Both the position numbers and the translations under genes were made by a program. Under the pieces are notes generated by a model. The model was not told the origin of the DNA. It did not search any database and saw only the letters and a list, made by a program, of their open reading frames with translations. Shown here one piece after another: positions 2,801 through 54,526 of a stretch of DNA of 64,000 nt; position 1 is the first letter of the stretch; each line of letters opens with the position of its first letter. Source of the DNA: a virus; the IMG/VR virus record IMGVR_UViG_3300007517_000007, positions 1 to 64,000 of that record. One strand, written 5' to 3'.

Positions 2801-4444
2801 TCAGCGCCTCTTTTTCGACGCCTTGTGCTCCTCAGCCTTCTCCGACAGAGTCTTCGGACGCTCCGGCTCATCGGACTCCGACGTGTTATCGGTCTGACTG
2901 CCCGGGGCCTTCCATGCACCCTTCTTCATCTTCGGTGGCCTGCCGGACCCGCTGCCGTGGGTCGACTGGTCGTGGCTGGCGTGGAACTGCTCGACACGGA
3001 ACACCCGGACCGTCGGCGTGCGGAACTGGCGAGGACCGAACCGGGTCATGAATCCCGACGACAACTCCACCGCCTCGACCGCCTCGACCGCTTCGACCGA
3101 CAGGGCTTCGGCAGGCTCGGCACAGCCGCCACCGCAGCCGCAGTCACCATCAGCCAACGTCGTCAACGACGACGCCGTGAAGAACCCGCCCGACGCCACG
3201 AGAGCAAACACCTCGTCATCAGCGGTCAACGCCAACGCTGCCTGGCCGGGCATCACGTAGTCACCGGCCGACGCTGCGAGTGCCTGCGTCACCTTGAACC
3301 CGCCGTTGTTCACCGCGACCAGCGCACAGCACTCGCGTGGGTTGCCGTTGATGAACCGCCAGTCCGGGGAGATGTCCGACGCCCGCAGATTGCGGATCTG
3401 AACCGGGGTCGCCTGCGGGCGCATCACACCGGCCACATAGATCCCGAACTGTGTGTCGTACGGGACGACGTCGGCGACCGCCGAACCGGTGTGAGCGTAG
3501 AACGCCATCGCGTCCGACGCCTGACGCTTCAAGTCGGGGTGCACGGTGTCCATCACGATCGGGCCGGTACGGATCGTGTCGCCCTCCGCGGTCAGCACAC
3601 TGCCGACACGGAACGCCGCGTAGTTCGTGCGCGACTTCGGGACCGGGACGCACTTCCCAGCGAACGCGATGTGGCAGGTGCCCTCCGACGCGATGATCCC
3701 CGACAGGCGACCATCCGCCGAGATGTCCAGCGGGTGGTTCATGTCCGCCGGGTTGCCCGGCTTCGAGAACCACGACTTCGGTGGGGCCAACGGGATCGAC
3801 GAACCCCCCGACGCGACAAGCGACTCGACCGGGTCGATCGGTGTGAACACACGGGCGGTCATGGATCCGGCAGACGCAGCCATCGCGCCCTCCTCTGTGT
3901 TGGTAGTGAGTTCGATGGTTGCTTCGATGATCGCCTGGAACGGGCAGACAGTCGCCCCACGGATCCGACCCCGTGAGATGTTGCGGAGCGTGCCGAGCTT
4001 CGTGCGGGTCTCCGACAGTTGCACGGCGTCGAGGTCGACCGAGATGCCACGCATCGTGCCTCGATCCAACGCCAACGCCAAGTCGATACCGCCCGGCGCG
4101 AACGGGTCGATGAACCCCGTCGCCCAGACCCGCTGGTCGATACGGGTCAACGTCACGATGTTTCCGGCCAGCATCGCGCCGTCATGCCCGGACCCGCCGA
4201 CCGGGTTCACGAACTGCGCCATCAACGACAACGGCAACGACGCCTCGTCCCACGTCAACGCGCCAGCAGCAACACGGCGCATGTCGCCGGTGTCAACACC
4301 CTCGACGACGATGAACCCCGCCCACGGCACCATCTCACCGTTACGGATCGCTTCGACCGCTCGACCGCCGGTCACGGAGAACGTCGCCGACATGCCGTTC
4401 ACGGCCTCGGGAGAGAGCGCAGCGAGGATCGCGGCAGTTGACAT
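2801..4444 (-). CDS. Putative capsid maturation protease
   Basis: 547 residues. The first 160 have a prohead-protease-like arrangement: WAGFIVVEGVDTGDMRRVAA, then VWATGFIDPF and a block ending GTMRGISVDLDAVQL. The middle (about 290-400) has the RTGPIVMDTVHPDLKRQASD and FGIYVAGVMRP signature typical of actinophage capsid maturation proteins. It follows portal and MuF, the usual order. The C-terminal 90 residues are different in kind: a cysteine cluster CGCGGGC, a VEAVEAVEAVE run, then a HASHDQSTHG header and a basic Ser/Lys tail. That header type also occurs in the protein at 62836-63699. The ATG lies 6 nt after a TACGAT hexamer (4451-4456), so it may be leaderless. Function by family; active-site residues not assigned. 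Confidence 0.7.
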   Translation of the reverse strand: MSTAAILAALSPEAVNGMSATFSVTGGRAVEAIRNGEMVPWAGFIVVEGVDTGDMRRVAAGALTWDEASLPLSLMAQFVNPVGGSGHDGAMLAGNIVTLTRIDQRVWATGFIDPFAPGGIDLALALDRGTMRGISVDLDAVQLSETRTKLGTLRNISRGRIRGATVCPFQAIIEATIELTTNTEEGAMAASAGSMTARVFTPIDPVESLVASGGSSIPLAPPKSWFSKPGNPADMNHPLDISADGRLSGIIASEGTCHIAFAGKCVPVPKSRTNYAAFRVGSVLTAEGDTIRTGPIVMDTVHPDLKRQASDAMAFYAHTGSAVADVVPYDTQFGIYVAGVMRPQATPVQIRNLRASDISPDWRFINGNPRECCALVAVNNGGFKVTQALAASAGDYVMPGQAALALTADDEVFALVASGGFFTASSLTTLADGDCGCGGGCAEPAEALSVEAVEAVEAVELSSGFMTRFGPRQFRTPTVRVFRVEQFHASHDQSTHGSGSGRPPKMKKGAWKAPGSQTDNTSESDEPERPKTLSEKAEEHKASKKRR

Positions 4445-4723: not shown

Positions 4724-7003
4724 TCAGTCCGGGGCGGCCCTTTGGCGACGGGCGGCGCGACGGGTCGAGCCGACCACACGGATCCTCGGGTCGACGAGAA
4801 TGCCCTCCAACGGGCGGCCCGACAGCAACGCCGCCGTCGCCCGGTGATGCCCGGACAAGATGATGTGCTGACCGTTTGCCGGGTTCCGGTAGATCACCGG
4901 GTACTGGTTGCCTGGCTGGTCACGGTCAGCGAACGTCTCACCGACCGACTGGTACGTCGGGTCGTTCATGTAGTAGTCGACGCCCTCACGAGTCACGCCG
5001 GGCTGCGTAGCGTGCAACGTGCGAGGGTCGAACGCCGACAACTGCGGCGGTCGGGCCAACGCCTCAGCGACCACCGCCTTGTCGTACAACGGTGCACCTT
5101 TCGTGCGAGACGCCGACCGGAACGGGACTGTCGTCACCCCGACACCACCTTCGGCGAAGATCGCGTCGAGCCCCTTGCCGAACTGGTCCTTGTGCCGCTC
5201 CAGCTGCTCACGGTTCGGTGTCTCGACGAGACGGTGTTCGCGTTCGTACGTGCGGATCCGTGACCGTTCCTCCCTGAACCGGCGGGCCTGGTCAGGATCG
5301 AAGATCGACGGGCGGACACCGACGTCGAACGTGCGGCGCGGACGACCCGACGAGTCGTAATGCGAACGCCACCGGCCTCCCTCGAACGAGCCCCTCGCGT
5401 GTCGTTGCTGGACATCCCACGACATGCCATGCGACTTCGACTCGATGTCGTGCAGCTCTGCGAAGTCGTAGGCGTATTCGAGCAGGGTGTCCATGTCCAC
5501 CGACGCCCGAGCGGCCACCATCATCTGATCGCCGCCAGCGAGGTTCAGTAGCACCTGCGCCGCCCACCGGTGATGACCATCGAGGATGCGGCCGTCCGAC
5601 GACACGAACGCCGGATGCTCCGGGGTGAACTGGCCGTTACGGATCGCCGCGACCATCTTGCCGACCTTGCGGGCGTCGAGTTCTGACTGTGTCGCCAACA
5701 CGTCCAGCGGGTCGACGGACTCCAGCGTCACCGTCGCGCCTTTGCCTTCGATGTACGACTGGAAGTCCTCGATGAAGTTCTCCGGGATCTGCGGCATCTC
5801 GTCACGCGTCAACGGGTTCCGTGACACCCCGGTGAAGAACTCCTCCGTGACCCGTACCAGTGTCAGATCGACCGGTTCGGGATGACGACCGAGGATCTCG
5901 ACGAGGTCTGCTGCGTCGTTCATGCCCACCGACACCGGGTCGCCGTTGATGACGTCGTCGGCCAGCACGCTCAGAGACGACACGGTCAGCACATCGCCGA
6001 CAGTAGTAGCGAACCCGACACCGGCCGTCGACACCGTGAACGCCGTCTTGACCGCGTCAAGCAGCTCTGGGCGGCGCATCCTGTACCGGCCTCGGATCTC
6101 GGCGATCCGTGCGTACGTCAGCAGGGTCGCCATGTTCATGTCGTCCAACACGTCGGGGCAGTCCGATCCAGCAGCCAACCCTTGCAGACACAACGAGTTG
6201 ATGACGGCCAACTGCAACGCCGGTTTGTTCATCCTCGACCGGCCCGGAATGTTCAGCTGACGCGCCGTCTTGTACAACGCTTTCTTCGTGGCGTCGACCG
6301 CCTGTTTCACCTGGTCGCCGTCCACCCAACCGAGCAGGCACCGGCAGTTGATTTTCAGTTCGATCGGGAGTTGCGGATCACCCGGGAATCTGGCGTCGAA
6401 CCCTCCGACGTTGAACAGGCCACCGATCGGGACGACGTCACGGTCGACTGCGACGTGCGCCTCACGAACCCTGTCGTCGCGCTGCGTGATCCACGACTTC
6501 GCTGCCACCCCCGAGGCCTGGAACGACGCGTCGAACCCGGCGTTGATCGACGCCGTCGTCGACGTGCGAGCCAACACGTCCGCCTTGCGCGGATTCAACG
6601 GTGACATCGGACTGTCGAGCAGCAAGTCCAGCACCAGGTCCGAGGGGATCTCGTCTTCGATGATCGTCTCGGTGAACTCGTCCAACGACGCCCTGATCGC
6701 CGACGCCAAATCGTTCATCGCGTTCTCCTGCAACACGATCAGCTTCGCCAGTTGATCGTCGGTCGGCAACACCCCGAACAGCACCGCCGCAGCGATCACA
6801 GCGTCCATGTACCCGTCGCCCTGCGCGTCGGACACCCCCAACGTCAACGCCTCCCACTCGGCGTCGGAGATGGTCTGTCCTGCGCCCGCAACGAGGGCGG
6901 TGATCTGCGGGGCGACCAGGTCGACAGCAGCTCGGTACGCGGCACGCGACTCGCGTATCACCGCCTCGAAGATTTCGGGGTCGACGTACCGTTCGACGGT
7001 CAC
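4724..7003 (-). CDS. MuF-type minor head protein with two ParB/Srx-like domains
   Basis: 759 residues; the GTG start at 7001-7003 is 7 nt past the portal stop. Order: helical N-terminus (1-140); MuF core (about 145-226) ending in the KINCRC motif; two Rho-N/SAP-like segments (NIPGRSRMNKPALQLAV, 251-267, and RGRYRMRRPELLDAV, 304-318); a ParB-like domain (about 425-500) with DGRILDGHHRWAAQVL; a header-like stretch (526-545) ending GSFEGGRW; a charged linker; and a second domain (about 680-745) with ANGQHIILSGHHRATAALL. MuF proteins attach to the portal inside the capsid and often carry effector domains. The GHHR motif is the ParB/Srx active-site signature (nucleotide binding or hydrolysis). Two such domains in one MuF suggest a capsid-borne effector. 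That function is inferred. Confidence 0.8.
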   Translation of the reverse strand: MTVERYVDPEIFEAVIRESRAAYRAAVDLVAPQITALVAGAGQTISDAEWEALTLGVSDAQGDGYMDAVIAAAVLFGVLPTDDQLAKLIVLQENAMNDLASAIRASLDEFTETIIEDEIPSDLVLDLLLDSPMSPLNPRKADVLARTSTTASINAGFDASFQASGVAAKSWITQRDDRVREAHVAVDRDVVPIGGLFNVGGFDARFPGDPQLPIELKINCRCLLGWVDGDQVKQAVDATKKALYKTARQLNIPGRSRMNKPALQLAVINSLCLQGLAAGSDCPDVLDDMNMATLLTYARIAEIRGRYRMRRPELLDAVKTAFTVSTAGVGFATTVGDVLTVSSLSVLADDVINGDPVSVGMNDAADLVEILGRHPEPVDLTLVRVTEEFFTGVSRNPLTRDEMPQIPENFIEDFQSYIEGKGATVTLESVDPLDVLATQSELDARKVGKMVAAIRNGQFTPEHPAFVSSDGRILDGHHRWAAQVLLNLAGGDQMMVAARASVDMDTLLEYAYDFAELHDIESKSHGMSWDVQQRHARGSFEGGRWRSHYDSSGRPRRTFDVGVRPSIFDPDQARRFREERSRIRTYEREHRLVETPNREQLERHKDQFGKGLDAIFAEGGVGVTTVPFRSASRTKGAPLYDKAVVAEALARPPQLSAFDPRTLHATQPGVTREGVDYYMNDPTYQSVGETFADRDQPGNQYPVIYRNPANGQHIILSGHHRATAALLSGRPLEGILVDPRIRVVGSTRRAARRQRAAPD

Positions 7004-7010
7004 ACCAGCC

Positions 7011-9149
7011 TCAGACCGTGATCGGCAGGACGTCTTCGAGGATCGCAAGGACCGTCGACGTCGGCACCCGGTACCCGTTCGGGCCGCGTTGGATCGTGTC
7101 ATGCAACCGGTCCGTCAGGAAGTCCTGCATCCGACTGCACAACGAATGAGCGACCAGCGCCGCGGCCTCGTGGGCGCGTTCTTCGTCCATGCCGTCACGG
7201 GTCAGGTACCCGGCGGTCAACGCCAGCGTCGTGTCGTTCAGTTCGGACCATGCGTCGCGCAGCAGACGCGACGGGCTCAACCCGAGCGACGCCATGTCGG
7301 AACGGGTCACCGTCGACATGAGCGTCTGTTTCGGCACCGACTTCGCCCGGGCCTTCAACGAGTCGTCGGCACCCTGGAGATGCGACACGAACCTCGAACC
7401 GGCCTTGCGGAGAGCGAGGTCGACAGCCAGGTCGGCCTCAGCGACCAGGGCCTGCGTCAACGCCGCCAGGTTCTCCGGTCGGTCCGGGACTTCGCTGCCG
7501 GAGGTGGCGTCGACGATGTCACCGTTCGCTGGTTGGTCACCTTTCGCGCCGGGCAACGCCGGGACGGTCGGCGCGAGACCGGCACCCGGCTCCTCACCCC
7601 CAGCGGTCGCGACACCGGCGATCGCTTCGAGGACGCCAGCGAGGTCGTAGTCCTCCCAGCCGGGCAGTTGCAGCAGCAGCGGGGCGAACAGGATCGGGTT
7701 CGTCTCGATCAGCTGCCACACACGACGCTCGGTGCGTTGCTCGGGCGACGCGGCGTCGGCCTTGTCGAATCCGTTGGCGGACAGGATGGCCTCGTCGGAC
7801 AGCAGGTCGCGCATGTCGCGTGCTGACTGTGCTTCGTCGGCGCGTGCGGCGACCGGTGACGGATCGAACTCGACTTTCCAGGTGAACGCTTCCTCCTCCG
7901 ACATGCCCTCGAACGTGACGAGCATCGGGCGGAGGTAGTTCACGGTCAGGAAGTCGGCGAGCAGCTGGCCGATCGGTTGGATGTGCTTCACCAGGAAGTC
8001 CTGGTCGATGATCGCTGACGTCCAGTGGTTCACTGACGCCCGACCCGACATCAGCTCCGGTGGGGCGTCGAGACCACGCGAGAGCCGGGTCAGGGCTTCC
8101 ACCCGGAGTTCCTGCGCCCAGCCGTCGAGTTCACGCGACAGCTCGATGACCTTGACGTACTGGCCTTCCTCGCCTTTGCCGACCAGGATCAACGGGACCA
8201 GACGGGCAGCCGACAACGGATCCATCTGCGACTGGTTGACGTGCTCGTAGATTTCCTCGACGAGCTGGTCGATGTCGTACAGCACTCCCTGCGAGCCGTC
8301 CGTCGCCAGTGACTCGGCGTCGTCGGTGTCGCCGACACCGTGCAACGTCATGCCTTCGGGGATGAACAGGATGTTCGCCGGGATACGCGACTTCACGGTG
8401 GCGTCGACCATCTGCGTCAACGACTTGATCTCGGCGACGATCGGCAACACCCGACGCACCTGGCAGTCGGCGAGATCCGAGTAGATCGGCGACGAGGACA
8501 GGCAACGCGCCACGTACGTGTCGTCGTCGAGACGTTCGACGTCTTCGGATGTCATCCCCGACCGGCGGCGCACCAGGTGACCGTCGGCGTCCGGGTACAG
8601 CTCCATCGTCGACAGGAACTCCCACATGATCCCGGACCCGGTGTCGATCGGTGTGCCGACCAGGTGGCCTTCACCGGCGCAGAACAGGTGATACGCGCCT
8701 TTGCGGATGACTTCGGAGTTTCCACCGTTCGGGCCGACCAACGCCTCCATGACCCCTTCGGGACGTGGGTCGTACTCGATGCCGTCGTCGTCGCGGTCGT
8801 TGACAGTCCAGCGGCCGGTTTCCTCGTCCCATTTCCGGACCGGGAATCCGCACAGGGCGGTGACGTTCGCTTGGAGTTGCAGCATGTAGCCGAGTTCGGC
8901 GACAGCAAGCGGGGCCTCGTAGCATTTCTCCTGCCACACCCGGTCCTGCTGCGCCGTGTTCCGACGCCGACGGCGTTGCGGTCGGGTCTCGTCGCCGATC
9001 GTGCGGAGCGCAGCAGACGACACCTTCGGCGAGAACGTCGGGCGTTGCATCGCCAGCTCCGTCGACTTCGTCACAGGCGAACGCGAGAACAGGCTCAGCC
9101 GCTTCGCAGGTACGCCCGGTTCGAGAGGCGCAAGTCTGTCGCGAGCCAT
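7011..9149 (-). CDS. Portal protein
   Basis: 712 residues starting MARDRLAPLEPGVPAKR. Forms the dodecameric ring at one capsid vertex through which DNA enters and leaves. Portal features: a positively charged N-terminus, WQEKCYEAPLAVAELGYMLQ, the central FLSTMELYPD and VKSRIPANILFIPEGM segments, and the helix-rich stem/wing region (IELSRELDGWAQELRVEALT, ELMSGRASVNHWTSAIIDQD). The last 150 residues (after about 560) form an appended Ala/Asp-rich helical extension. The ATG lies 8 nt after a TAGAGT hexamer. It is followed by the MuF gene, the classic portal-MuF pair. The large terminase is on the opposite strand 10 kb away, which is unusual. Confidence 0.88.
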   Translation of the reverse strand: MARDRLAPLEPGVPAKRLSLFSRSPVTKSTELAMQRPTFSPKVSSAALRTIGDETRPQRRRRRNTAQQDRVWQEKCYEAPLAVAELGYMLQLQANVTALCGFPVRKWDEETGRWTVNDRDDDGIEYDPRPEGVMEALVGPNGGNSEVIRKGAYHLFCAGEGHLVGTPIDTGSGIMWEFLSTMELYPDADGHLVRRRSGMTSEDVERLDDDTYVARCLSSSPIYSDLADCQVRRVLPIVAEIKSLTQMVDATVKSRIPANILFIPEGMTLHGVGDTDDAESLATDGSQGVLYDIDQLVEEIYEHVNQSQMDPLSAARLVPLILVGKGEEGQYVKVIELSRELDGWAQELRVEALTRLSRGLDAPPELMSGRASVNHWTSAIIDQDFLVKHIQPIGQLLADFLTVNYLRPMLVTFEGMSEEEAFTWKVEFDPSPVAARADEAQSARDMRDLLSDEAILSANGFDKADAASPEQRTERRVWQLIETNPILFAPLLLQLPGWEDYDLAGVLEAIAGVATAGGEEPGAGLAPTVPALPGAKGDQPANGDIVDATSGSEVPDRPENLAALTQALVAEADLAVDLALRKAGSRFVSHLQGADDSLKARAKSVPKQTLMSTVTRSDMASLGLSPSRLLRDAWSELNDTTLALTAGYLTRDGMDEERAHEAAALVAHSLCSRMQDFLTDRLHDTIQRGPNGYRVPTSTVLAILEDVLPITV

Positions 9150-16643: not shown

Positions 16644-17231
16644 TCAGGTGCCGAATCCGCGTCGGGATCCGACCTCGTTGTTCCAGAACTTCGCCGAGCA
16701 CGCCGGGCACAACGGACCGGACCGGCCGTTGGCGTCAGTCACGCCAACGCAGCGTGGTGTCATGCACACCCCTGACCACGGATCCCACCCGGACGGCGGT
16801 GTGAGGTGAGCGTTGCGTTCGACGACCCACTGGCACATCGCTAGGAGCCGCCACTGCGCGAGGGTGGATCGTTCGGCGCGCCGCCACACCTTCATGAAGA
16901 ATCGCAGATGGTGTGAGCACAGTCGCAGGAAGTGGGCCGGTTCCTCGCAGTCACCGACGGCGCACCACACCGTGGCCGGGATCCGATGCTCGACGCGTGC
17001 GATCTCATCCCACAACGCCATCGGTGACGTATACATCGAGGCGAACAGTTCGTGAGCGTTCCAGACGTGCCGGTAGGAGATCAACCCGAGGTAGCCGGGC
17101 TGGACACGAATGTCGCCGGAGTGCACCAGACCCCGGATTGTTTGCGCGCTGACTCCGAACACAAGCGCGACTGTGCGGCAGCCGATCAGTTTCGGCGGCG
17201 CGATGACGATCGGATCAGGTGCCGCCGCCAT
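16644..17231 (-). CDS. Helix-turn-helix protein with zinc-binding cysteines
   Basis: 195 residues. A winged-helix segment at 15-60 ([20 protein letters not shown] then [20 protein letters not shown]) matches MerR/excisionase-type DNA-binding domains. Cysteine pairs follow in [20 protein letters not shown] and at the C-terminus ([22 protein letters not shown]), indicating two zinc knuckles of the C-x4-C...CxxH and CxxC type seen in several small genes here. A DNA-binding regulatory or recombination role is plausible. It overlaps the stop of the clamp/FtsK-like gene by 17 nt. Confidence 0.65.
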
Positions 17232-18549
17232 CTTCGGCGTCGAGTTCCTCGCTGGTCATCAGCACCTCACGGGCCTTGTTCCCGGATGCCGGGCCGACGA
17301 CGCCTTGCTGTTCGAGTGCGTCCATGATCGCACCTGCCTTTGCGAACCCGACCATCAGCTTGCGTTGAATCATCGACGTCGAACCCAACTGAGAGGTCAC
17401 GACCAACACCTTCGCCTGACGCACCAGCGTGTCGAACTCGGCGATCGAGTCGCCCTGCGCGTTCGCGCTGAGCGGGTCGTCGCCTTCGTTGATCACCGGT
17501 TCGTGCTGGCGGTAGTCGCCGAGATCCGCCGACGTCTTGTAGGCGGGTGCGATGTCGTGCTTGCCGGTGTCGGCGTCGGCGTCTTCGCCGATCACGCCGT
17601 CCTCAGCGAGCTGCCCGAGGATGGTCTCGGCGTGGTCTTCGGTGATGTCGAGAGCGGCCGCTACGGACTTGACGGTGGCGTACCCGGCGTCGACGACGAA
17701 CTCGGCGGCGCGTCGGACCTGCGCGTCGATGGCGTCAGCGAGGATCGCCGCGGTGTTGTCGTCGGTGACTTCGGTGCGGAGCAGTTCCGTGTACCAGTCG
17801 TCGAGGTGTTCGGAGAACTCGCGCATCTCACCTTCGACGTCGGCTTCCTCAGACTGCGGGACTTCTTCACCGGCGTTGCCTGTCGGCATGACGAGACCGG
17901 TGACGTTCACGTCGGACGGGCCTTCGATGCGGATGCGGGCGACGCCGACCGATCCGCCCAGATCGAAACGGATCACGGCCTTGTCCCACAGCCCGGACAG
18001 CTTCCCGAGTCGGAGGATGCCGTTCGCGCCGAACCCGATCGTGGCTGCCGGGGCCCACTTGTGACCCTGCCACAACGGCCGCCAGTTCGGGAACACCCCC
18101 TCGAAGATGGGGGTCTCGATGGACTCGTCGTACTTCTCGACGATCCGGAAATGCACCGTCGACGCAGCCAACCCTTCGAGAGTGTTGTGGTCGGAGCCGT
18201 CCTGTTCGCCGACAGCGAACTCCATCGTGGTTCGGGTGTCGTGGCCGTCGGCTTTCGTGAGTTGCTGCGCGTACTTCATGAGGCCGAGCACCCGATGGTC
18301 GAGGTCACGGCAGATCGCGACGTCGTCGGGGAGTTCCTCGATCAACGGTTCGGGGGCGTCGTCGTTGTCGGTGTTCGGCACCCACGCTTTCAGCAGAACG
18401 AACGTGTCGGTCGACAGCAACCGGATGCCGGTCTCGAACGTCTCGATCAGGGTGGTGCGGTACAGCACGGGGCGGCCGTCGTCTTCCGACTGCGCGAGAG
18501 CCACCGAGGCCCATGAGCGTGCAAGGTTCCAGGCGTTGAATTGGATCAT
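17215..18549 (-). CDS. Sliding-clamp-like protein fused to FtsK gamma winged helix
   Basis: 444 residues. The C-terminal 72 residues (373-444) match the FtsK gamma domain closely: [20 protein letters not shown], then [20 protein letters not shown] and [19 protein letters not shown]. That domain is the DNA-sequence reader of the FtsK/SpoIIIE translocase. A second winged-helix-like unit (about 285-335) carries [20 protein letters not shown]. Residues 1-220 have a DnaN-like pattern: [42 protein letters not shown]. Beta-clamp-like proteins occur in actinophages, but clamp fused to FtsK gamma is unusual. There is no ATPase motor (no Walker A). The ATG is 7 nt after TACGGT, so probably leaderless. 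FtsK gamma call firm; clamp call moderate. Confidence 0.75.
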
Positions 18550-19729: not shown

Positions 19730-21271
19730 ATGGCAACACAGCACGATCTCGCTCAGCGGGCCTGGAAGGCCATGCCGCACACGATGGGCCGACGCCTGTC
19801 GGAACGGACGTACAAGGCACCACAGCACGTCCAGTTCATCTCCTGGCTGCTGTACCTGTCCGCCACGTTGAAGAACCGGCGGCCGATCGTCCCACGGTTG
19901 GGGATCAGCTTGCCGCCTGGTTCGGGCAAGTCGGAGATCGTCGACTTCTACAACCCGATCTGGCTGCTGGAGCACGACGCGCGTCGCCGGATCATTCTGG
20001 CGTCCTACGCCGGGACGCTCGCTGAGGAGCAAGGCAAACGGGTCCGCAACCAGATCGAGATGGCACAGGACGTCCTGACGTGCCGGATCATGCAGGACTC
20101 GCGTGCCGCCGACCGGTGGCGGACGAGCAAGAACGGTGGCATGTGGACCGTCGGTGTCGGCGGTTCGATCACCGGTCGTCGCGCGTCGAACTTCCTCATA
20201 GACGACCCCCATAAGAACTTCGCTGAGGCCACGTCGGAGAAAAACCAGTTGGACGTGTGGAACTGGTACACGTCGACGGCGCGCACCCGTCTGCTTCCCG
20301 GGTCGGCGTTGATGGTGATCCAGACCCGGTGGGCGGAGATGGATCTGATCGGCCGGTTGCGGGCCCAGGACGAAGCGAAGAACCAGTGGTTGTTCGTGAA
20401 GCTGCCTGCGATCGCTGAGGAGAACGAGTCGACAAGGTCGGTGCTCGGCGATTTCTGGTGCGACCGGTTGGAGTCGATGGGTGTGCCGTTGTTCGAGTGG
20501 CGGCGCGGGGAAGGCGAGGCGCTCTGGCCGGAGTTGGAGCCGGGTGTTCCCTGGTTCGACGTCGAGGAGTACGAACAGATCCGCCATGAGGTCGGCGAGA
20601 TGGTGTGGGCTGGGCTGTACCAGCAACGCCCGGCACCGCTCGAAGGCGAGATGTTCAAGCGGTCCGATTGGGTTCGGGTGGACGCGATGCCCGCCGGGCC
20701 GCACACGATGGTGCGGCGATGGGACTTGGCGGCGTCGGTCAAGGGTGACTGGACCGCGACCTGCCTCATGGCGTACCACCACGCCACCCGCATGCCGTAC
20801 ATCCTGGAGATGAACCGGGACCGGCTGACTGCGCCGGAAGTGAAGGCCTTTGTTCGCGACACCGCCGAGTACGACCGGGAACGGTTCGGGGATGTCGTGC
20901 ACATCCGGATCGAACGTGAACCGGGCTCGTCCGGCAAGAACGTCGAGTCGGACTACCTGCTCGAAGTGCTGCCCGATTTCAACTCGGTGAAGTTCCTGTC
21001 GTCGTCGGGTGACAAGACGGTCCGGGCGTACCCGTTGTCGTCGCAGCAAGGCTCCATGCACGTCCACATCTGCCGTCGCGACGTCGGCGGGACGTTCGAG
21101 ACACCGAACTGGTGGCAATGGCTGATCGAGGAAGCAGCAGCGTTCCCGAACGCGAAGCATGACGACCTCGTCGACGTCGCCTCGTTGGCATGGGTGGACC
21201 TCGTCGAGCTGGTACCGCGGTCAGGACGCGCCCGGGCGAAGACGACCGCTCGACGCCAGCTCGGGTTCTAG
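19730..21271 (+). CDS. terL: Terminase large subunit
   Basis: 513 residues. Packages DNA into the prohead using ATP and cuts the concatemer. ATPase: Walker A LPPGSGKSE (about 63-71); Walker B with catalytic acidic residues NFLIDDPHK (about 155-163); a QTRWAEMDLIGRL coupling segment (about 200-212). RNase-H-like nuclease: first Asp in RRWDLAAS (about 325-332), further acidic residues in HIRIEREPGSSGK, and HDDLVD (about 481-486) near the C-terminus. The length is normal. It is on the plus strand, opposite the portal and capsid genes, and its TAG overlaps the zeta-toxin gene's TAG in a shared CTAG. Confidence 0.93.
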   Translation: MATQHDLAQRAWKAMPHTMGRRLSERTYKAPQHVQFISWLLYLSATLKNRRPIVPRLGISLPPGSGKSEIVDFYNPIWLLEHDARRRIILASYAGTLAEEQGKRVRNQIEMAQDVLTCRIMQDSRAADRWRTSKNGGMWTVGVGGSITGRRASNFLIDDPHKNFAEATSEKNQLDVWNWYTSTARTRLLPGSALMVIQTRWAEMDLIGRLRAQDEAKNQWLFVKLPAIAEENESTRSVLGDFWCDRLESMGVPLFEWRRGEGEALWPELEPGVPWFDVEEYEQIRHEVGEMVWAGLYQQRPAPLEGEMFKRSDWVRVDAMPAGPHTMVRRWDLAASVKGDWTATCLMAYHHATRMPYILEMNRDRLTAPEVKAFVRDTAEYDRERFGDVVHIRIEREPGSSGKNVESDYLLEVLPDFNSVKFLSSSGDKTVRAYPLSSQQGSMHVHICRRDVGGTFETPNWWQWLIEEAAAFPNAKHDDLVDVASLAWVDLVELVPRSGRARAKTTARRQLGF

Positions 21272-24541: not shown

Positions 24542-24885
24542 GCTGGTGACTGGGCTTCCTTGATCGCCCAGGTCGGCAGATCACCCAGAGGTACGGTCTG
24601 CCCGGCAAGCGAGTGTGTGCAGTCGCTGAGGAACTCGAACACACCGGCACGCAGGAACGAGTGGCACACGGTGTCGTCGGTGCGGGTGAGGATCGACGGT
24701 GAAAGCGTCGGCGCGTCGAGGTTGCCGTCCCATTCCCACGAAGGTGTCTTGACCGCCGAGTTGACCGGCAGCATGTGGATGCCGTCGCCGCCGCGTTCGG
24801 CGCACCCAGGGCAGCAGAACATCAACGCCTCGTAGTGCACGCCGTGATCGGCGACGAAACGGATACACGACTTCGGGTTGATCAT
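24538..24885 (-). CDS. DUF6527-like protein
   Basis: 115 residues starting MINPKSCIRFVADHGVHYEA. Carries the series FCCPGCAERGGDGIHMLPVN, PSWEWDGNLDAPTLSPSILT, VCHSFLRAGVFEFLSDCTHS and LAGQTVPLGDLP, matching a family found in many phages (often mis-annotated as ammonia monooxygenase; DUF6527). Conserved Cys, Trp and His residues suggest metal binding, but no activity is known. The start overlaps the upstream stop as ATGA; the longer ORF to 24987 is not needed. Confidence 0.82.
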   Translation of the reverse strand: MINPKSCIRFVADHGVHYEALMFCCPGCAERGGDGIHMLPVNSAVKTPSWEWDGNLDAPTLSPSILTRTDDTVCHSFLRAGVFEFLSDCTHSLAGQTVPLGDLPTWAIKEAQSPA

Positions 24886-25907
24886 GTGGTTCTCCAGACG
24901 CACTCGGTGCCGATGTCCTCGATCGCGCCGGTCTCGACGCCCTGGCATCGCTCGACGCACGGATCCGGGACGCCGCAGAGTACACACGGGTGACGGGCTT
25001 CGCGTGGCGCAGCTGTCTCAACGTCGAAGTCGAGGTAGTCGCCGCGTCGCAGCCACGTCGACGGGTGCGGGATGTACCGCTGCCACTGGTCGTCACCCTG
25101 GTGCTCGCGCCGTGTCCGTTCTGCGATGTCGGCCGACGCACCGACGAGGACGTCGACGTTCGGGAGATGCCCGAGCATCACACGCCACGCAGTGACAGCG
25201 TCCAGCTTCGCGAGTTTCCGCGGCCATGACTTCCACCACTCGTCGAAGTCGTCGACGCGTTCGAGCGGTGTGAGCGGTTCGGGTGGCTGAGATCGACGCG
25301 CCTTGCGGCCCCCGCTCTTTGCGGGGGTTTGGGGGTTTTCTCTCTGTTGTTCTCTCTGTTCTTCTATGTGGTCGTGTGACGACCGGTTACTGGTCGTGTG
25401 ACGACCAGTAACTGGTCGTGTGACGACTGGTCGTGTGGCGACCAGTGGAGAACCTGTGGGGATTGTGGATATGTCAGACGGGGTTTCCCACACGGCGAAA
25501 TCGAACTCGATCACCCACCGCTTGCCCGGTTCGTCGCGACTCAGAACGACCATGCCAACGGCGACGAGATGGGCGATGGCCTTCGACACGGTCGACGCCG
25601 CGATCCCTGTCCGCTCGGCGATCATGTTGCGCGACACGTACGCCTCGCGCCAGTTGTCGGCGTGTGAGGCCAACCACCCGGCGACGCGTAGCTCGAACGG
25701 GTTGAGTGTCTGATCCTCCCACCGCCAGTTCGGGACGACGGTGTGTCCCTGCCGTTTGTTCTTCGATCGGATCCCGGTCACGATCGGGTTTGCACGTCTG
25801 GAGCACACGCGTGTAGTTTCATTTCCACTTCCTGTTTGGAGACGGGTTCGGATTGAACGGGGCACGATTGACGTCGTGTCCCGTTCACGTTTTCGGTCGC
25901 TTACCAT
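24882..25907 (-). CDS. Replication initiator with winged helix and embedded iterons
   Basis: Up to 341 residues; the true start may be 25907 or one of the downstream GTGs (25811 or nearby), since no start has a good ribosome site. Winged-helix N-terminal domain: HTVVPNWRWEDQTLNPFELR, VAGWLASHADNWREAYVSRN, ERTGIAASTVSKAIAHLVAV. The C-terminal half has the initiator/helicase-loader signature DEWWKSWPRKLAKLDAVTAW, then YIPHPSTWLRRGDYLDF, typical of phage replication proteins. A CxxC pair (HPCVLCGVPDPCVERCQG) near the end may be a zinc site. Four iterons and a DnaA box lie in the linker codons, so the origin lies inside its own initiator gene, as in lambda O. Confidence 0.75.
   Translation of the reverse strand: MVSDRKRERDTTSIVPRSIRTRLQTGSGNETTRVCSRRANPIVTGIRSKNKRQGHTVVPNWRWEDQTLNPFELRVAGWLASHADNWREAYVSRNMIAERTGIAASTVSKAIAHLVAVGMVVLSRDEPGKRWVIEFDFAVWETPSDISTIPTGSPLVATRPVVTRPVTGRHTTSNRSSHDHIEEQREQQRENPQTPAKSGGRKARRSQPPEPLTPLERVDDFDEWWKSWPRKLAKLDAVTAWRVMLGHLPNVDVLVGASADIAERTRREHQGDDQWQRYIPHPSTWLRRGDYLDFDVETAAPREARHPCVLCGVPDPCVERCQGVETGAIEDIGTECVWRTT
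25326..25472. other. Predicted replication origin inside initiator gene
   Basis: Four repeats of TGGTCGTGTGACGACC begin at 25369, 25391, 25413 and 25428 (spacings 22, 22 and 15). The unit contains GGTCGT/ACGACC, a 6-bp inverted repeat, so each is a possible dimer-binding site. A pyrimidine-rich, relatively AT-rich tract lies alongside (25326-25366), and TGTGGATAT at 25464-25472 is an 8/9 DnaA-box match. The arrangement of iterons, unwinding tract and DnaA box is typical of phage and plasmid origins. Confidence 0.65.
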
Positions 25908-50335: not shown

Positions 50336-51379
50336 TCATGGTTCCGCCAGTCTGCGCGATGTCATCACACGGTTGCCGGTACCCGATTCGGCGACCGCAG
50401 CGAACAACCCAAGCTCGGGAGACCACGCCATCCCCCACCATTCGTTGTCGGCGGCGGACGTACGGGACGTCCAAGTGATCCCGTCGGGAGACGTCATCAC
50501 CCGGTTGCCAGCACCGGCCCAGGAAACCGCAGCGAACAGGCCAAGCTCGGGCGACCACACAACCGAGACCCAGGGGTTGTCGGCGGCGGACGTACGGATC
50601 GTCCAGTTGATCCCGTCCGGCGAAGTCATCACGCGGTTGCCGGTGCCCCCTTGGGAGACCGCTGCGAACAGACGAAGCTCGGGTGACCACGCAACCGAAC
50701 GCCAGTCGTTGTCGGCGGCGGACACACGGATCGTCCAGTTGATCCCGTTGGGAGAGGTCATCACACGGTTGCCGGTGCCGTCTTCGGCGACCGCTACGAA
50801 CAGACCAAGCTGAGGCGACCACGCAATCGAGGACCACCAGTTGTCGGCGGCGGACACACGGATCGTCCAGTTGATTCCGTTGGGAGAGGTCATCACGCGG
50901 TTGCCGGTGCCGGTATAAGAGACCGCAGCGAACAGACCAAGCTCGGGCGACCACGCAACCGAGGACCAGAAGTTGTTGGCGGCGGACGTACGGGGAGTCC
51001 AGTTGATTCCGTCAGGTGACGTCATCACACGGTTGCCGGAACCCGAGTCGGCGACCGCTGCGAACAGACCAAGCTGAGGCGACCACGCAATCGAGGTCCA
51101 GACGTTGTTGGCGGCGGACGTACGGATCGTCCAGTTGATTCCGTCAGGAGAGGTCATCACACGGTTGCCGCTGCCGGTATAAGAGACCGCTGCGAACAGA
51201 CCAAGCTGAGGCGACCACGCAACCGAGGACCACGAGTTGTTGGCGGCGGACGTACGGGCCGTCCAGCGGCTCGTTGACAGATTGCCGAGCATGGTCTGCA
51301 AGGCCTTCGGGGCCGGAGGTGCAGGCGGGACGACGACGACGGGAGTTCGTGGTCTGACGGCGTTGATGTTGTAGCTCAA
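50336..51379 (-). CDS. Seven-repeat beta-propeller-type surface protein
   Basis: 347 residues from a TTG that overlaps the previous stop as TTGA. After a Pro-rich N-terminus, the unit W-x-S-x-AWSP[QE]LGLFAAV-x-x-x-G-[TS]GNRVMTSP-[DN]-GI-[NT]W recurs seven times with a spacing of about 44 residues (132 bp). Seven repeats suggest a closed seven-blade propeller. Similar BNR/Kelch-like proteins occur in phage fibres and bind sugars. Located between the 51376-52362 virion gene and the endolysin. The sequence shows the repeats; the fold and receptor role are inferred. Confidence 0.68.
   Translation of the reverse strand: MSYNINAVRPRTPVVVVPPAPPAPKALQTMLGNLSTSRWTARTSAANNSWSSVAWSPQLGLFAAVSYTGSGNRVMTSPDGINWTIRTSAANNVWTSIAWSPQLGLFAAVADSGSGNRVMTSPDGINWTPRTSAANNFWSSVAWSPELGLFAAVSYTGTGNRVMTSPNGINWTIRVSAADNWWSSIAWSPQLGLFVAVAEDGTGNRVMTSPNGINWTIRVSAADNDWRSVAWSPELRLFAAVSQGGTGNRVMTSPDGINWTIRTSAADNPWVSVVWSPELGLFAAVSWAGAGNRVMTSPDGITWTSRTSAADNEWWGMAWSPELGLFAAVAESGTGNRVMTSRRLAEP
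50356..51262 (-). repeat. Seven 132-bp coding repeats
   Basis: Seven near-identical units of about 132 bp encode the propeller blades. They differ mostly in the residues flanking AWSP (for example NVWTSI, NFWSSV, NDWRSV, NEWWGM), the positions expected to form ligand surfaces. Confidence 0.75.
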
Positions 51380-52509: not shown

Positions 52510-54351
52510 TCAGGAACCGCTGGATACGCACGTACGCAGCGTGGCTGCGTAACCCGGGCGGGCACCCGACGGCACGACGGTCGAGTCGATGCGGATCGAC
52601 TCACAGCCGAGCTGTGCGATACCGATCCACTCCTCCATGAACATCGCGAAGTCGTTGGTCTTGTTCAGGGCATGGTCCCGAACCAGGCCGACGTCGAGCG
52701 ACCCGCCGTCCAACTTGACGAATGTGCCCGGCGCGAACATGTACGACGTCGCCCGGCAGGGGTAGTCGTTCAGTGCCGCACCGGCACCGGGCTGCGGTCG
52801 CGTCAACGGGTTCAGCCCAGCGACGGAGGTCGGGTCGTCGTAGTAGAACGTCACGTCGAGGTTTCGCGACGCAAACGCTGCGACCACGAAGCTGTCCGGG
52901 ACGTTCATGAACTCCAGGCCGGAGTCGCCGTCGTTGAGCAGGTCCGCCTTGACCACATCGACTGACCAGTCCGGCATCATCACCTGGAGGCGTGCACCGC
53001 GAGGCATGTGATGACGCTTGCGGTAGCCGTTCGCTGCGACCGTCAGGTCGTACATGAGCGAACGGGCCGCGCCGTACGAACCGATGCCGACCGTGGCCGT
53101 GGAAGCGGCGTTGATCGCGTTGAGGTAGTAGCGCTGCTTGCGGAGCGTGAACTGCACGGCGACGTCTTCGAGGAAGTTCTCGATCAGCTCCGGGAACGTC
53201 CGGTACTGGAGGTTGTCGAAGATCGTGCACTGCGTGACGGCTTCGACGAGCACCTCTGCGATGTCCGGGCACGTCACCCGCAGACACGGCTTCTCAGCGC
53301 CCGGAGCGGTCGGGCTGATACCCGACGGTCCCCAGATGCCGACAGCACCCGCACCCTGAATCGTGCAGTTCGCCCGGATGAACCGGATGCCGCCACGCGG
53401 GGCCTGCACCGTCGGGATGGCGTTCTCGACGTCCTGGATCGGCTCGGCGAGCCGGAAGAAGTCGTACAACTGCGTCTGCGGGGTGCACTGTGCGCCGGAT
53501 GCGACGAGACCGCCACGCTCGGTGAGCTGGTTGAACGACTTGAGGTTCTCGATCGGGTCGAGGCCCAGCGAGGGGAGTTCCTCGTTCCAGACCTTCGTGC
53601 CCGTCGCGATGGACATCTCGTCGCGGCTGCCCTGCGGGATGTTGCCGAAGCTCATCCGCTTCTTCCACATGGCCTGCGCGACCTCAGCCGGGCTGGAGAA
53701 CTGCTGACCCGCACCGTCGGATGCTTGACGGGTCGACTCCATCGAGAACTGGTACTGGGCGGTGTCGATGTCGACCGGGATGTTCTTCGGCTTCGACGCA
53801 GGCGAGTTCGCAGCCAGTTCGGCCATGTTCGCGCCCCGGAAGCTGCGGCGAGGGCTGGTCGCCATCTCCTCCTCCTCATCGTCGTCCTTGGCGAACGGCT
53901 TTGGCTTCGGATCCTTCTTCTTGCCGTGGCCCTTCTTGAACAGGGCCAACTCGTCGGCGGATGCGTCGGCGTCCGGTGCGGTGTCGGTGTCGGTGTCGGC
54001 GTCGTCGCCGTCTTCGTCGGTGTCCTCATCGGCGTCTTCGTCGGTGTCGGTGTCGGCTTCGGCGACAGCGAAACGCGCCAGGCTGGAGGCCAGCTCCGCC
54101 TTGGAGTCGTTGCGGGCCGACATCTCGGCGACTACTTCGTCGTCGAGTTCGCTGAGCAGGTTCGCCTCAGCGACTTCCTCGGTCGACAGTTCGACGCCGT
54201 TGCTGATGCGAGCGGCGAGCTGACGGCCACGGGCGGTCAGCTTGTTCTGGATGGTCGACAGTTCGACGGCTGACAGGGTCGAGAGATCCTGTGGGACTTC
54301 CACGGTCTCGGTCTCGACGGTGTCGTCGGCGTTGTCTTCGGGCTTGGCCAC
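52510..54351 (-). CDS. Major capsid protein with fused acidic scaffold-like region
   Basis: 613 residues from the GTG at 54349-54351, with AAGGAG 7 nt upstream. Residues 1-160 are a non-capsid extension: a helical part, then an acidic run (DTDTDEDADEDTDEDGDDAD, about 100-120) and a Lys-rich patch (KKGHGKKKDPKPKPF). From about 180 an HK97-like body: QASDGAGQQFSSPAEVAQAM, SFNQLTERGGLVASGAQCTP, EDVAVQFTLRKQRYYLNAIN and PGAGAALNDYPCRATSYMFA. The acidic-then-basic N-terminus resembles a fused scaffolding (delta) domain, which the protease would remove. A TATGAT promoter lies 170 nt upstream and a terminator hairpin lies downstream. Confidence 0.8.
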   Translation of the reverse strand: MAKPEDNADDTVETETVEVPQDLSTLSAVELSTIQNKLTARGRQLAARISNGVELSTEEVAEANLLSELDDEVVAEMSARNDSKAELASSLARFAVAEADTDTDEDADEDTDEDGDDADTDTDTAPDADASADELALFKKGHGKKKDPKPKPFAKDDDEEEEMATSPRRSFRGANMAELAANSPASKPKNIPVDIDTAQYQFSMESTRQASDGAGQQFSSPAEVAQAMWKKRMSFGNIPQGSRDEMSIATGTKVWNEELPSLGLDPIENLKSFNQLTERGGLVASGAQCTPQTQLYDFFRLAEPIQDVENAIPTVQAPRGGIRFIRANCTIQGAGAVGIWGPSGISPTAPGAEKPCLRVTCPDIAEVLVEAVTQCTIFDNLQYRTFPELIENFLEDVAVQFTLRKQRYYLNAINAASTATVGIGSYGAARSLMYDLTVAANGYRKRHHMPRGARLQVMMPDWSVDVVKADLLNDGDSGLEFMNVPDSFVVAAFASRNLDVTFYYDDPTSVAGLNPLTRPQPGAGAALNDYPCRATSYMFAPGTFVKLDGGSLDVGLVRDHALNKTNDFAMFMEEWIGIAQLGCESIRIDSTVVPSGARPGYAATLRTCVSSGS

Positions 54352-54526
54352 GGTGTAGCTCCTTGAGTGCAGGGTGTTCACGAAAAACCAGGGACGCGCC
54401 GGTGATCGGCACAGAATCATCGAGCGCCCTACGGGCGTGGATCGACGGCTTGCGGTTTGGCGCATCACCCCTGCGGAGCGAGCTACGACGGGTCGGTCCT
54501 ACGGGCCGGTGGTCCATCTGTTCGAC

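What the first reader, a model, noticed from the sequence alone, without database searches (positions are those of the whole stretch)
25326..25472. Replication origin inside the replication-initiator gene
Seen: four iterons with a perfect internal inverted repeat, a pyrimidine/AT-rich tract and an 8/9 DnaA box, all within the linker codons of a winged-helix initiator. Known: lambda has its origin inside gene O. Inference: this phage uses the same strategy in an actinobacterial setting.
Basis: partly seen in the sequence, partly recalled or inferred. Interest (0 to 1): 0.65.

Follow-up and report, generated by a model that had tools for sequence, protein, structure and literature searches.

The report
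Phage replication origin inside initiator gene
This uncultured virus of actinobacteria appears to start copying its DNA at a site hidden inside the gene for its own start protein, the same arrangement as in phage lambda, so it is a well-supported new example of a known kind rather than something new in principle.

Summary
Four 15-bp dyad-symmetric repeats (25370-25443) lie inside a minus-strand initiator gene (24882-25781, PHROG_270, E 5e-28). They sit in the disordered linker between a winged-helix domain and a C-terminal domain. The repeats occur nowhere else in the 71-kb record at one mismatch or less. Their 22-bp pitch is not a multiple of three, and no synonymous-codon shuffle reproduces them (0/200), so they are a DNA signal.

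Two relatives with 51-53% identical winged-helix domains (L015, L016) have four 15-bp dyads in the same linker at 22-23 bp pitch. The sequences differ; in L015 the change is made symmetrically in both half-sites, as expected for dimer binding. An A+T-rich purine tract follows the repeats, as in oriλ.

The best reading is a λ-type origin: the initiator binds the iterons, the tract melts, and helicase is recruited. Similar in-linker repeats occur in many PHROG_270 relatives, and Staphylococcus phage 80α has an annotated origin there. λ and the literature make the principle known.

Weak or unsupported parts: the DnaA box is absent near the origin in both relatives, GC skew gives no support, and only two repeats have fully perfect arms. 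Binding and origin activity are untested.

The parts
24882..25781 (-). Replication initiator gene (300 codons from the likely GTG start at 25781; the ORF is open back to an ATG at 25907)
   Evidence: PHROG_270 replication initiation protein, E 5.2e-28, residues 50-304 of the 341-aa ORF; Pfam HTH_36 and MarR_2 above cut-off; start chosen because GC3 is low upstream of codon 41 and relatives begin at the same point
25482..25781 (-). Codons of the winged-helix DNA-binding domain (residues 1-100)
   Evidence: AlphaFold2 pLDDT mostly 70-94; best PDB fold matches are MarR-type winged helices, weak E about 0.07; 51-53% identity to L015/L016
25370..25384 (-). Iteron 4 (nearest the A+T tract), GGTCGTCACACGACC
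25392..25406 (-). Iteron 3, GGTCGTCACACGACC
25414..25428 (-). Iteron 2, AGTCGTCACACGACC
25429..25443 (-). Iteron 1, GGTCGCCACACGACC (abuts iteron 2, no spacer)
25328..25368 (-). A+T-rich tract, purine-rich on the coding strand (AGAAGAACAGAGAGAACAACAGAGAGAAAA): probable DNA-unwinding element
   Evidence: 41% GC, tied lowest 40-bp window of the record; comparable tract in the same place in L015, weaker in L016
25309..25327 (-). G+C-rich hairpin CCCCCGC-AAAGA-GCGGGGG just beyond the A+T tract; possible third origin element
   Evidence: DNA fold -10.1 kcal/mol, z -3.2; but 14% of other windows in the gene hold an equal hairpin, so suggestive only
25464..25472 (-). DnaA-box-like 9-mer ATATCCACA (8/9), doubtful
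   Evidence: none near the origin in L039/L040
25032..25268 (-). Codons of the C-terminal helical domain (residues 172-250), probable helicase or loader recruiting domain
   Evidence: pLDDT about 90; matches PHROG 'primosomal protein' phrog_9327 E 2e-9

Best explanation
The stretch 25309-25443 is the phage's origin of theta replication. It is built like the lambda origin and carried in the linker codons of the initiator gene. Dimers of the initiator bind the four 15-bp dyads through the winged-helix domain, which wraps or bends the DNA. The adjacent A+T-rich, purine-biased tract melts. The C-terminal domain then brings in a replicative helicase, probably the host's. Having the iterons between the DNA-binding and helicase-recruiting modules keeps each DNA-binding domain linked to its cognate sites when the C-terminal part is exchanged by recombination. 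Shown: the sequence anatomy, the DNA-level constraint, the protein family, the conservation of layout in two relatives, and the difference in C-terminal parts. Inferred: binding, melting, helicase recruitment and origin activity.
For: Gene is a PHROG_270 replication initiator. Repeats are unique in 71 kb and absent from synonymous shuffles. A 22-bp pitch puts copies in different reading frames. GC3 falls to about 0.42 over 45 codons, the lowest of the genes tested in the phage. L015 and L016 have four 15-bp dyads in the same linker, pitch 22-23 bp (L015 GGACGCCACACGTCC, window GGTCGTCACACGACC: the change is made in both half-sites). The tract after the last iteron is A+T-rich, with GC3 0.13 in L015 codons 136-150. 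The C-terminal domain differs in L015/L016, with a P-like loader gene near the L015 initiator and a DnaC-like loader gene directly after that of L016. Lambda control: four iterons, pitch 20, 24, 23, then a 38-bp A+T-rich tract in gene O. Lambda O is a dimer on a 19-bp imperfect inverted repeat (PMC7466680). 80alpha has an annotated rep_origin inside a related gene.
Against: No binding, coverage or plasmid data exist. GC skew shows no switch here. The first two iterons are 15 bp apart, unlike the even 20-24 bp of lambda. No helicase (DnaB) and no known helicase loader was found in the record, which may be a fragment. L016's tract is only mildly A+T-rich.
Confidence: 0.87

Rival explanations
1. 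The dyads are an operator for autoregulation or replication-transcription control by the same winged-helix protein (or another regulator), and the true origin is elsewhere.
For: Dyads suit a dimeric MarR-like wHTH; operators and iterons are often shared in iteron replicons (own knowledge).
Against: They lie about 340 bp inside the gene, with no copy at 1 mismatch or less near the promoter side or anywhere else. They sit beside an A+T-rich tract, and the position is kept in relatives. Autoregulation would not by itself need that tract.
Confidence: 0.07
2. The repeats are a by-product of protein-level selection: a repetitive Pro/Thr/Arg-rich linker peptide.
For: Several relatives (ObLaDi, Aleemily, phiPsal1, Cinna) have linker repeats with a pitch of 15, a multiple of three, and the peptide repeats too.
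Against: In the window, L015, L016, RedFox, PL-1 and L034 the pitch is 22-23, so successive copies encode different peptides. Synonymous shuffles destroy them. GC3 drops as expected for DNA-level constraint.
Confidence: 0.03
3. The array is a partition (parS-like) or other maintenance site of a plasmid-like prophage.
For: Tandem dyads resemble centromere sites; some mycobacteriophages carry parABS (PMC7157519).
Against: No ParB_N domain in this record or the two relatives; no tyrosine integrase either, but lysogeny is unproven.
Confidence: 0.02

Closest known systems
Phage lambda origin inside gene O (O/P system)
   Same: Four iterons with imperfect dyad symmetry, in codons between the DNA-binding and partner-recruiting halves of the initiator, followed on the 3' side of the gene by an A+T-rich tract
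   Different: Iterons are 15 bp rather than 18-19 bp, pitch 15/22/22 against 20/24/23; iteron sequence unrelated; best family is PHROG_270, with O-like PHROGs matching only weakly (phrog_391 E 1e-4); no adjacent P gene found
Staphylococcus phage 80alpha replisome organizer with annotated internal rep_origin (DQ517338)
   Same: wHTH plus linker initiator (phrog_428, also hits phrog_270) with repeats, A+T-rich tract and a hairpin in the linker
   Different: Repeat pitch 15/30, A+T-rich low-GC phage, DnaC gene directly downstream
Initiators of L015 and L016 (IMGVR_UViG_3300046690_000348 and 3300011440_000004)
   Same: 51-53% identical wHTH; four 15-bp dyads, pitch 22-23; terminase relatives
   Different: Different half-site sequence, different C-terminal domain, own loader genes (P-like; DnaC-like)
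Mycobacteriophage cluster A RepA (Miko, Jeeves)
   Same: Actinophage initiator with HTH; authors suggested the origin may lie within repA as in lambda (PMC7157519)
   Different: No repeats were identified there; extrachromosomal prophage system with parABS, absent here

Membership tests
PHROG_270 replication initiation proteins | Profile match across wHTH and C-terminal region | tested here: met
   E 5.2e-28, residues 50-304 against profile 27-259
Lambda-type in-gene origin (by architecture) | Array of iterons inside the initiator coding sequence | tested here: met
   Four copies, unique in the record
Lambda-type in-gene origin (by architecture) | Iterons have dyad symmetry suited to dimer binding | tested here: met
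   5-6 of 7 position pairs symmetric; half-sites change together between the window and L015
Lambda-type in-gene origin (by architecture) | A+T-rich tract next to the iterons on the 3' side of the gene | tested here: met
   25328-25368, tied lowest-GC window of the record
Lambda-type in-gene origin (by function) | Initiator binds the iterons and opens the tract | not testable with these tools
   Needs footprinting and a melting assay
Lambda O protein family (homology) | Clear sequence match to O-like families as best hit | tested here: not met
   Best O-like PHROG is phrog_391, E 1.4e-4, wHTH region only; phrog_270 is far better
Lambda O/P module | Helicase-loader gene next to the initiator | tested here: not met
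   No phrog_50, phrog_109 or L015-loader match in the record; present near or next to the initiator in L015 and L016
DnaA-dependent origin | Conserved DnaA box or boxes | tested here: inconclusive
   One 8/9 E. coli-type box; none near the origin in L039/L040

The most novel reading that the evidence does not exclude
An origin in the linker of the initiator gene may be the general rule for wHTH (PHROG_270-type) initiators of actinobacteriophages and beyond. Dyad half-sites would co-evolve with the winged helix, while the C-terminal helicase-recruiting part and its loader (DnaT-like domain, P-like, DnaC-like) are exchanged 3' of the origin. That would make origins predictable from initiator genes in hundreds of uncultured phages.
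Probability: 0.5. Interest if true: 0.5.

Novelty: new member of a known kind. Interest (0 to 1): 0.38.

Why it matters
To my knowledge, replication origins of actinobacteriophages are mostly unmapped. A 150-bp cis site next to its trans factor, with a clear recoding test, makes this phage group testable and could give compact replicons for actinobacterial hosts. The three-phage comparison shows the same DNA-binding and iteron module joined to different C-terminal or loader modules. That bears on why phages keep the origin inside the initiator gene.

Tried and rejected
GC skew as evidence for the origin: coding-strand third-position skew is the same on both sides (-0.093 and -0.100), so there is no support.

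DnaA box as an origin part: no site at 8/9 or better to either DnaA consensus near the initiator in L039/L040.

Hairpin as a family-wide third element: eye-catching in Wheelbite, 80alpha, L017 and others, but not above background in most genes.

Close relatives in phage records and in bacterial genomes: one weak phage hit (ObLaDi, 26%), no genome hit, and only two close hits in IMG/VR.

Partition-site idea: no ParB.

Fold search: only generic MarR-type wHTH matches, none at E 0.001 or better.

Protein-repeat explanation rejected by frame and shuffles. Negative control: 1 of 25 other genes of the phage scored 2/200 or less; that gene is the Erf-like 1120-2241, pitch 15.

Full report
What was checked. 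The window is the first 64,000 of 71,284 bases of a virus record. At 25369-25449 the repeat finder returns four direct copies spaced 22, 22 and 15. Refining by symmetry gives a 15-bp unit, on the coding (minus) strand GGTCGTCACACGACC. It is exact at 25370-25384 and 25392-25406, and has one mismatch at 25414-25428 and 25429-25443. No other place in the record matches with one mismatch or less.

The gene. The repeats lie inside the minus-strand ORF 24882-25907. Its protein matches PHROG_270, 'replication initiation protein', at E 5e-28 over residues 50-304, and Pfam helix-turn-helix families. The real start is probably the GTG at 25781: codon GC3 is low before it and relatives begin at the same point. 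AlphaFold2 shows a winged-helix domain (residues 1-100), a disordered linker (most of 104-173) and a compact helical domain (172-250). The iterons, the A+T-rich tract and the hairpin are all encoded in the linker.

Is it a DNA signal? Yes. The 22-bp pitch is not a multiple of three, so copies that are 22 bp apart are read in different frames and encode different peptides (codon table). Permuting synonymous codons never gives more than two copies in a cluster, and never equals the observed periodicity in 200 trials. Third-position GC falls from about 0.85 to about 0.42 across the linker, the lowest 45-codon value among the genes tested in this phage. Among 25 other genes of this phage, one scores as low as 2/200 on the periodicity test.

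Relatives. IMG/VR holds two near relatives of the winged helix, L015 (66.9-kb record) and L016 (56.5-kb record), 51-53% identical. Both records also carry a terminase relative. Both have four 15-bp dyads in the same linker. L015 has GGACGCCACACGTCC three times and GGACGCCAGGCGTCC once, at pitch 23, 22, 22. L016 has GGTCACCTGGTGACC-like units at pitch 23, 22, 23. From window to L015 the third position of both half-sites changes (GGT..ACC to GGA..TCC), as expected if a dimer reads the dyad. In all three the last iteron is followed by a less G+C-rich, purine-biased stretch; in L015 the GC3 of codons 136-150 is 0.13.

Beyond the iterons the proteins diverge. The window has a DnaT/primosome-like C-terminal domain. 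L015 and L016 share another type, with a P-like loader gene near the L015 initiator and a DnaC-like loader gene directly after that of L016. No DnaB was found in any of the three records, so helicase is probably taken from the host; that is inference, and the records may be fragments.

Wider family. In-linker repeats that beat synonymous shuffles (2/200 or fewer) were found in the window gene and eleven of the 27 other initiator genes examined besides lambda O, including Arthrobacter phage RedFox (pitch 22), Lactobacillus phage PL-1 (23), Gordonia phages Aleemily and ObLaDi (15) and Pontimonas phiPsal1 (15). Lambda O itself scores 14/200 on the same test, so the test misses degenerate iterons. 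The 80alpha record carries an annotated rep_origin inside its initiator gene.

Comparison with the known. The lambda origin is four 18-bp iterons plus a 38-bp A+T-rich sequence within gene O (PMC3349717), pitch 20, 24, 23 in the annotated record. O binds as dimers to a 19-bp imperfect inverted repeat, and two iterons plus the A+T tract suffice for unwinding (PMC7466680). The window works like this by anatomy. By homology it belongs to PHROG_270; O-like PHROGs match only weakly. For mycobacteriophage RepA, authors already proposed a lambda-like position inside the gene as one of two possibilities (PMC7157519). The kind is therefore known and this is a new, well-supported member.

What does not hold. 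The DnaA-like box is 8/9 to the E. coli consensus only and has no counterpart near the initiators of the two relatives. GC skew gives no support. 'Perfect' inverted repeats is true of two of four copies. The hairpin 25309-25327 folds well but equal hairpins occur elsewhere in the gene.

Noticed in passing
25854-25887: A 15-bp-stem inverted repeat TGAACGGGGCACGATTGACGTCGTGTCCCGTTCA about 75 bp upstream of the likely initiator start, between divergent genes; could be an operator or a leader hairpin.
   Followed up: no
L004:15644-19279 (record 67644-71279): A 1211-aa protein with a PemK/MazF-like domain in the middle and a eukaryotic-type topoisomerase IB catalytic core at the C-terminus, an unusual combination.
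   Followed up: no
17215-18549: A 444-aa protein ending in an FtsK gamma domain (the DNA-translocation orienting domain) without an FtsK motor domain detected.
   Followed up: no
50361-51266: A tandem array of about seven 132-bp units with a 396-bp higher-order period in the structural region.
   Followed up: no
2801-4444, 4724-7102, 19730-21271, 52510-54468: Packaging and head genes are scattered: the portal/protease/morphogenesis block, the terminase large subunit on the opposite strand and the major capsid gene are tens of kb apart.
   Followed up: partly
L015, L016 initiators: The same winged-helix and iteron module is joined to different C-terminal domains and to different loader genes, P-like and DnaC-like.
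   Followed up: yes
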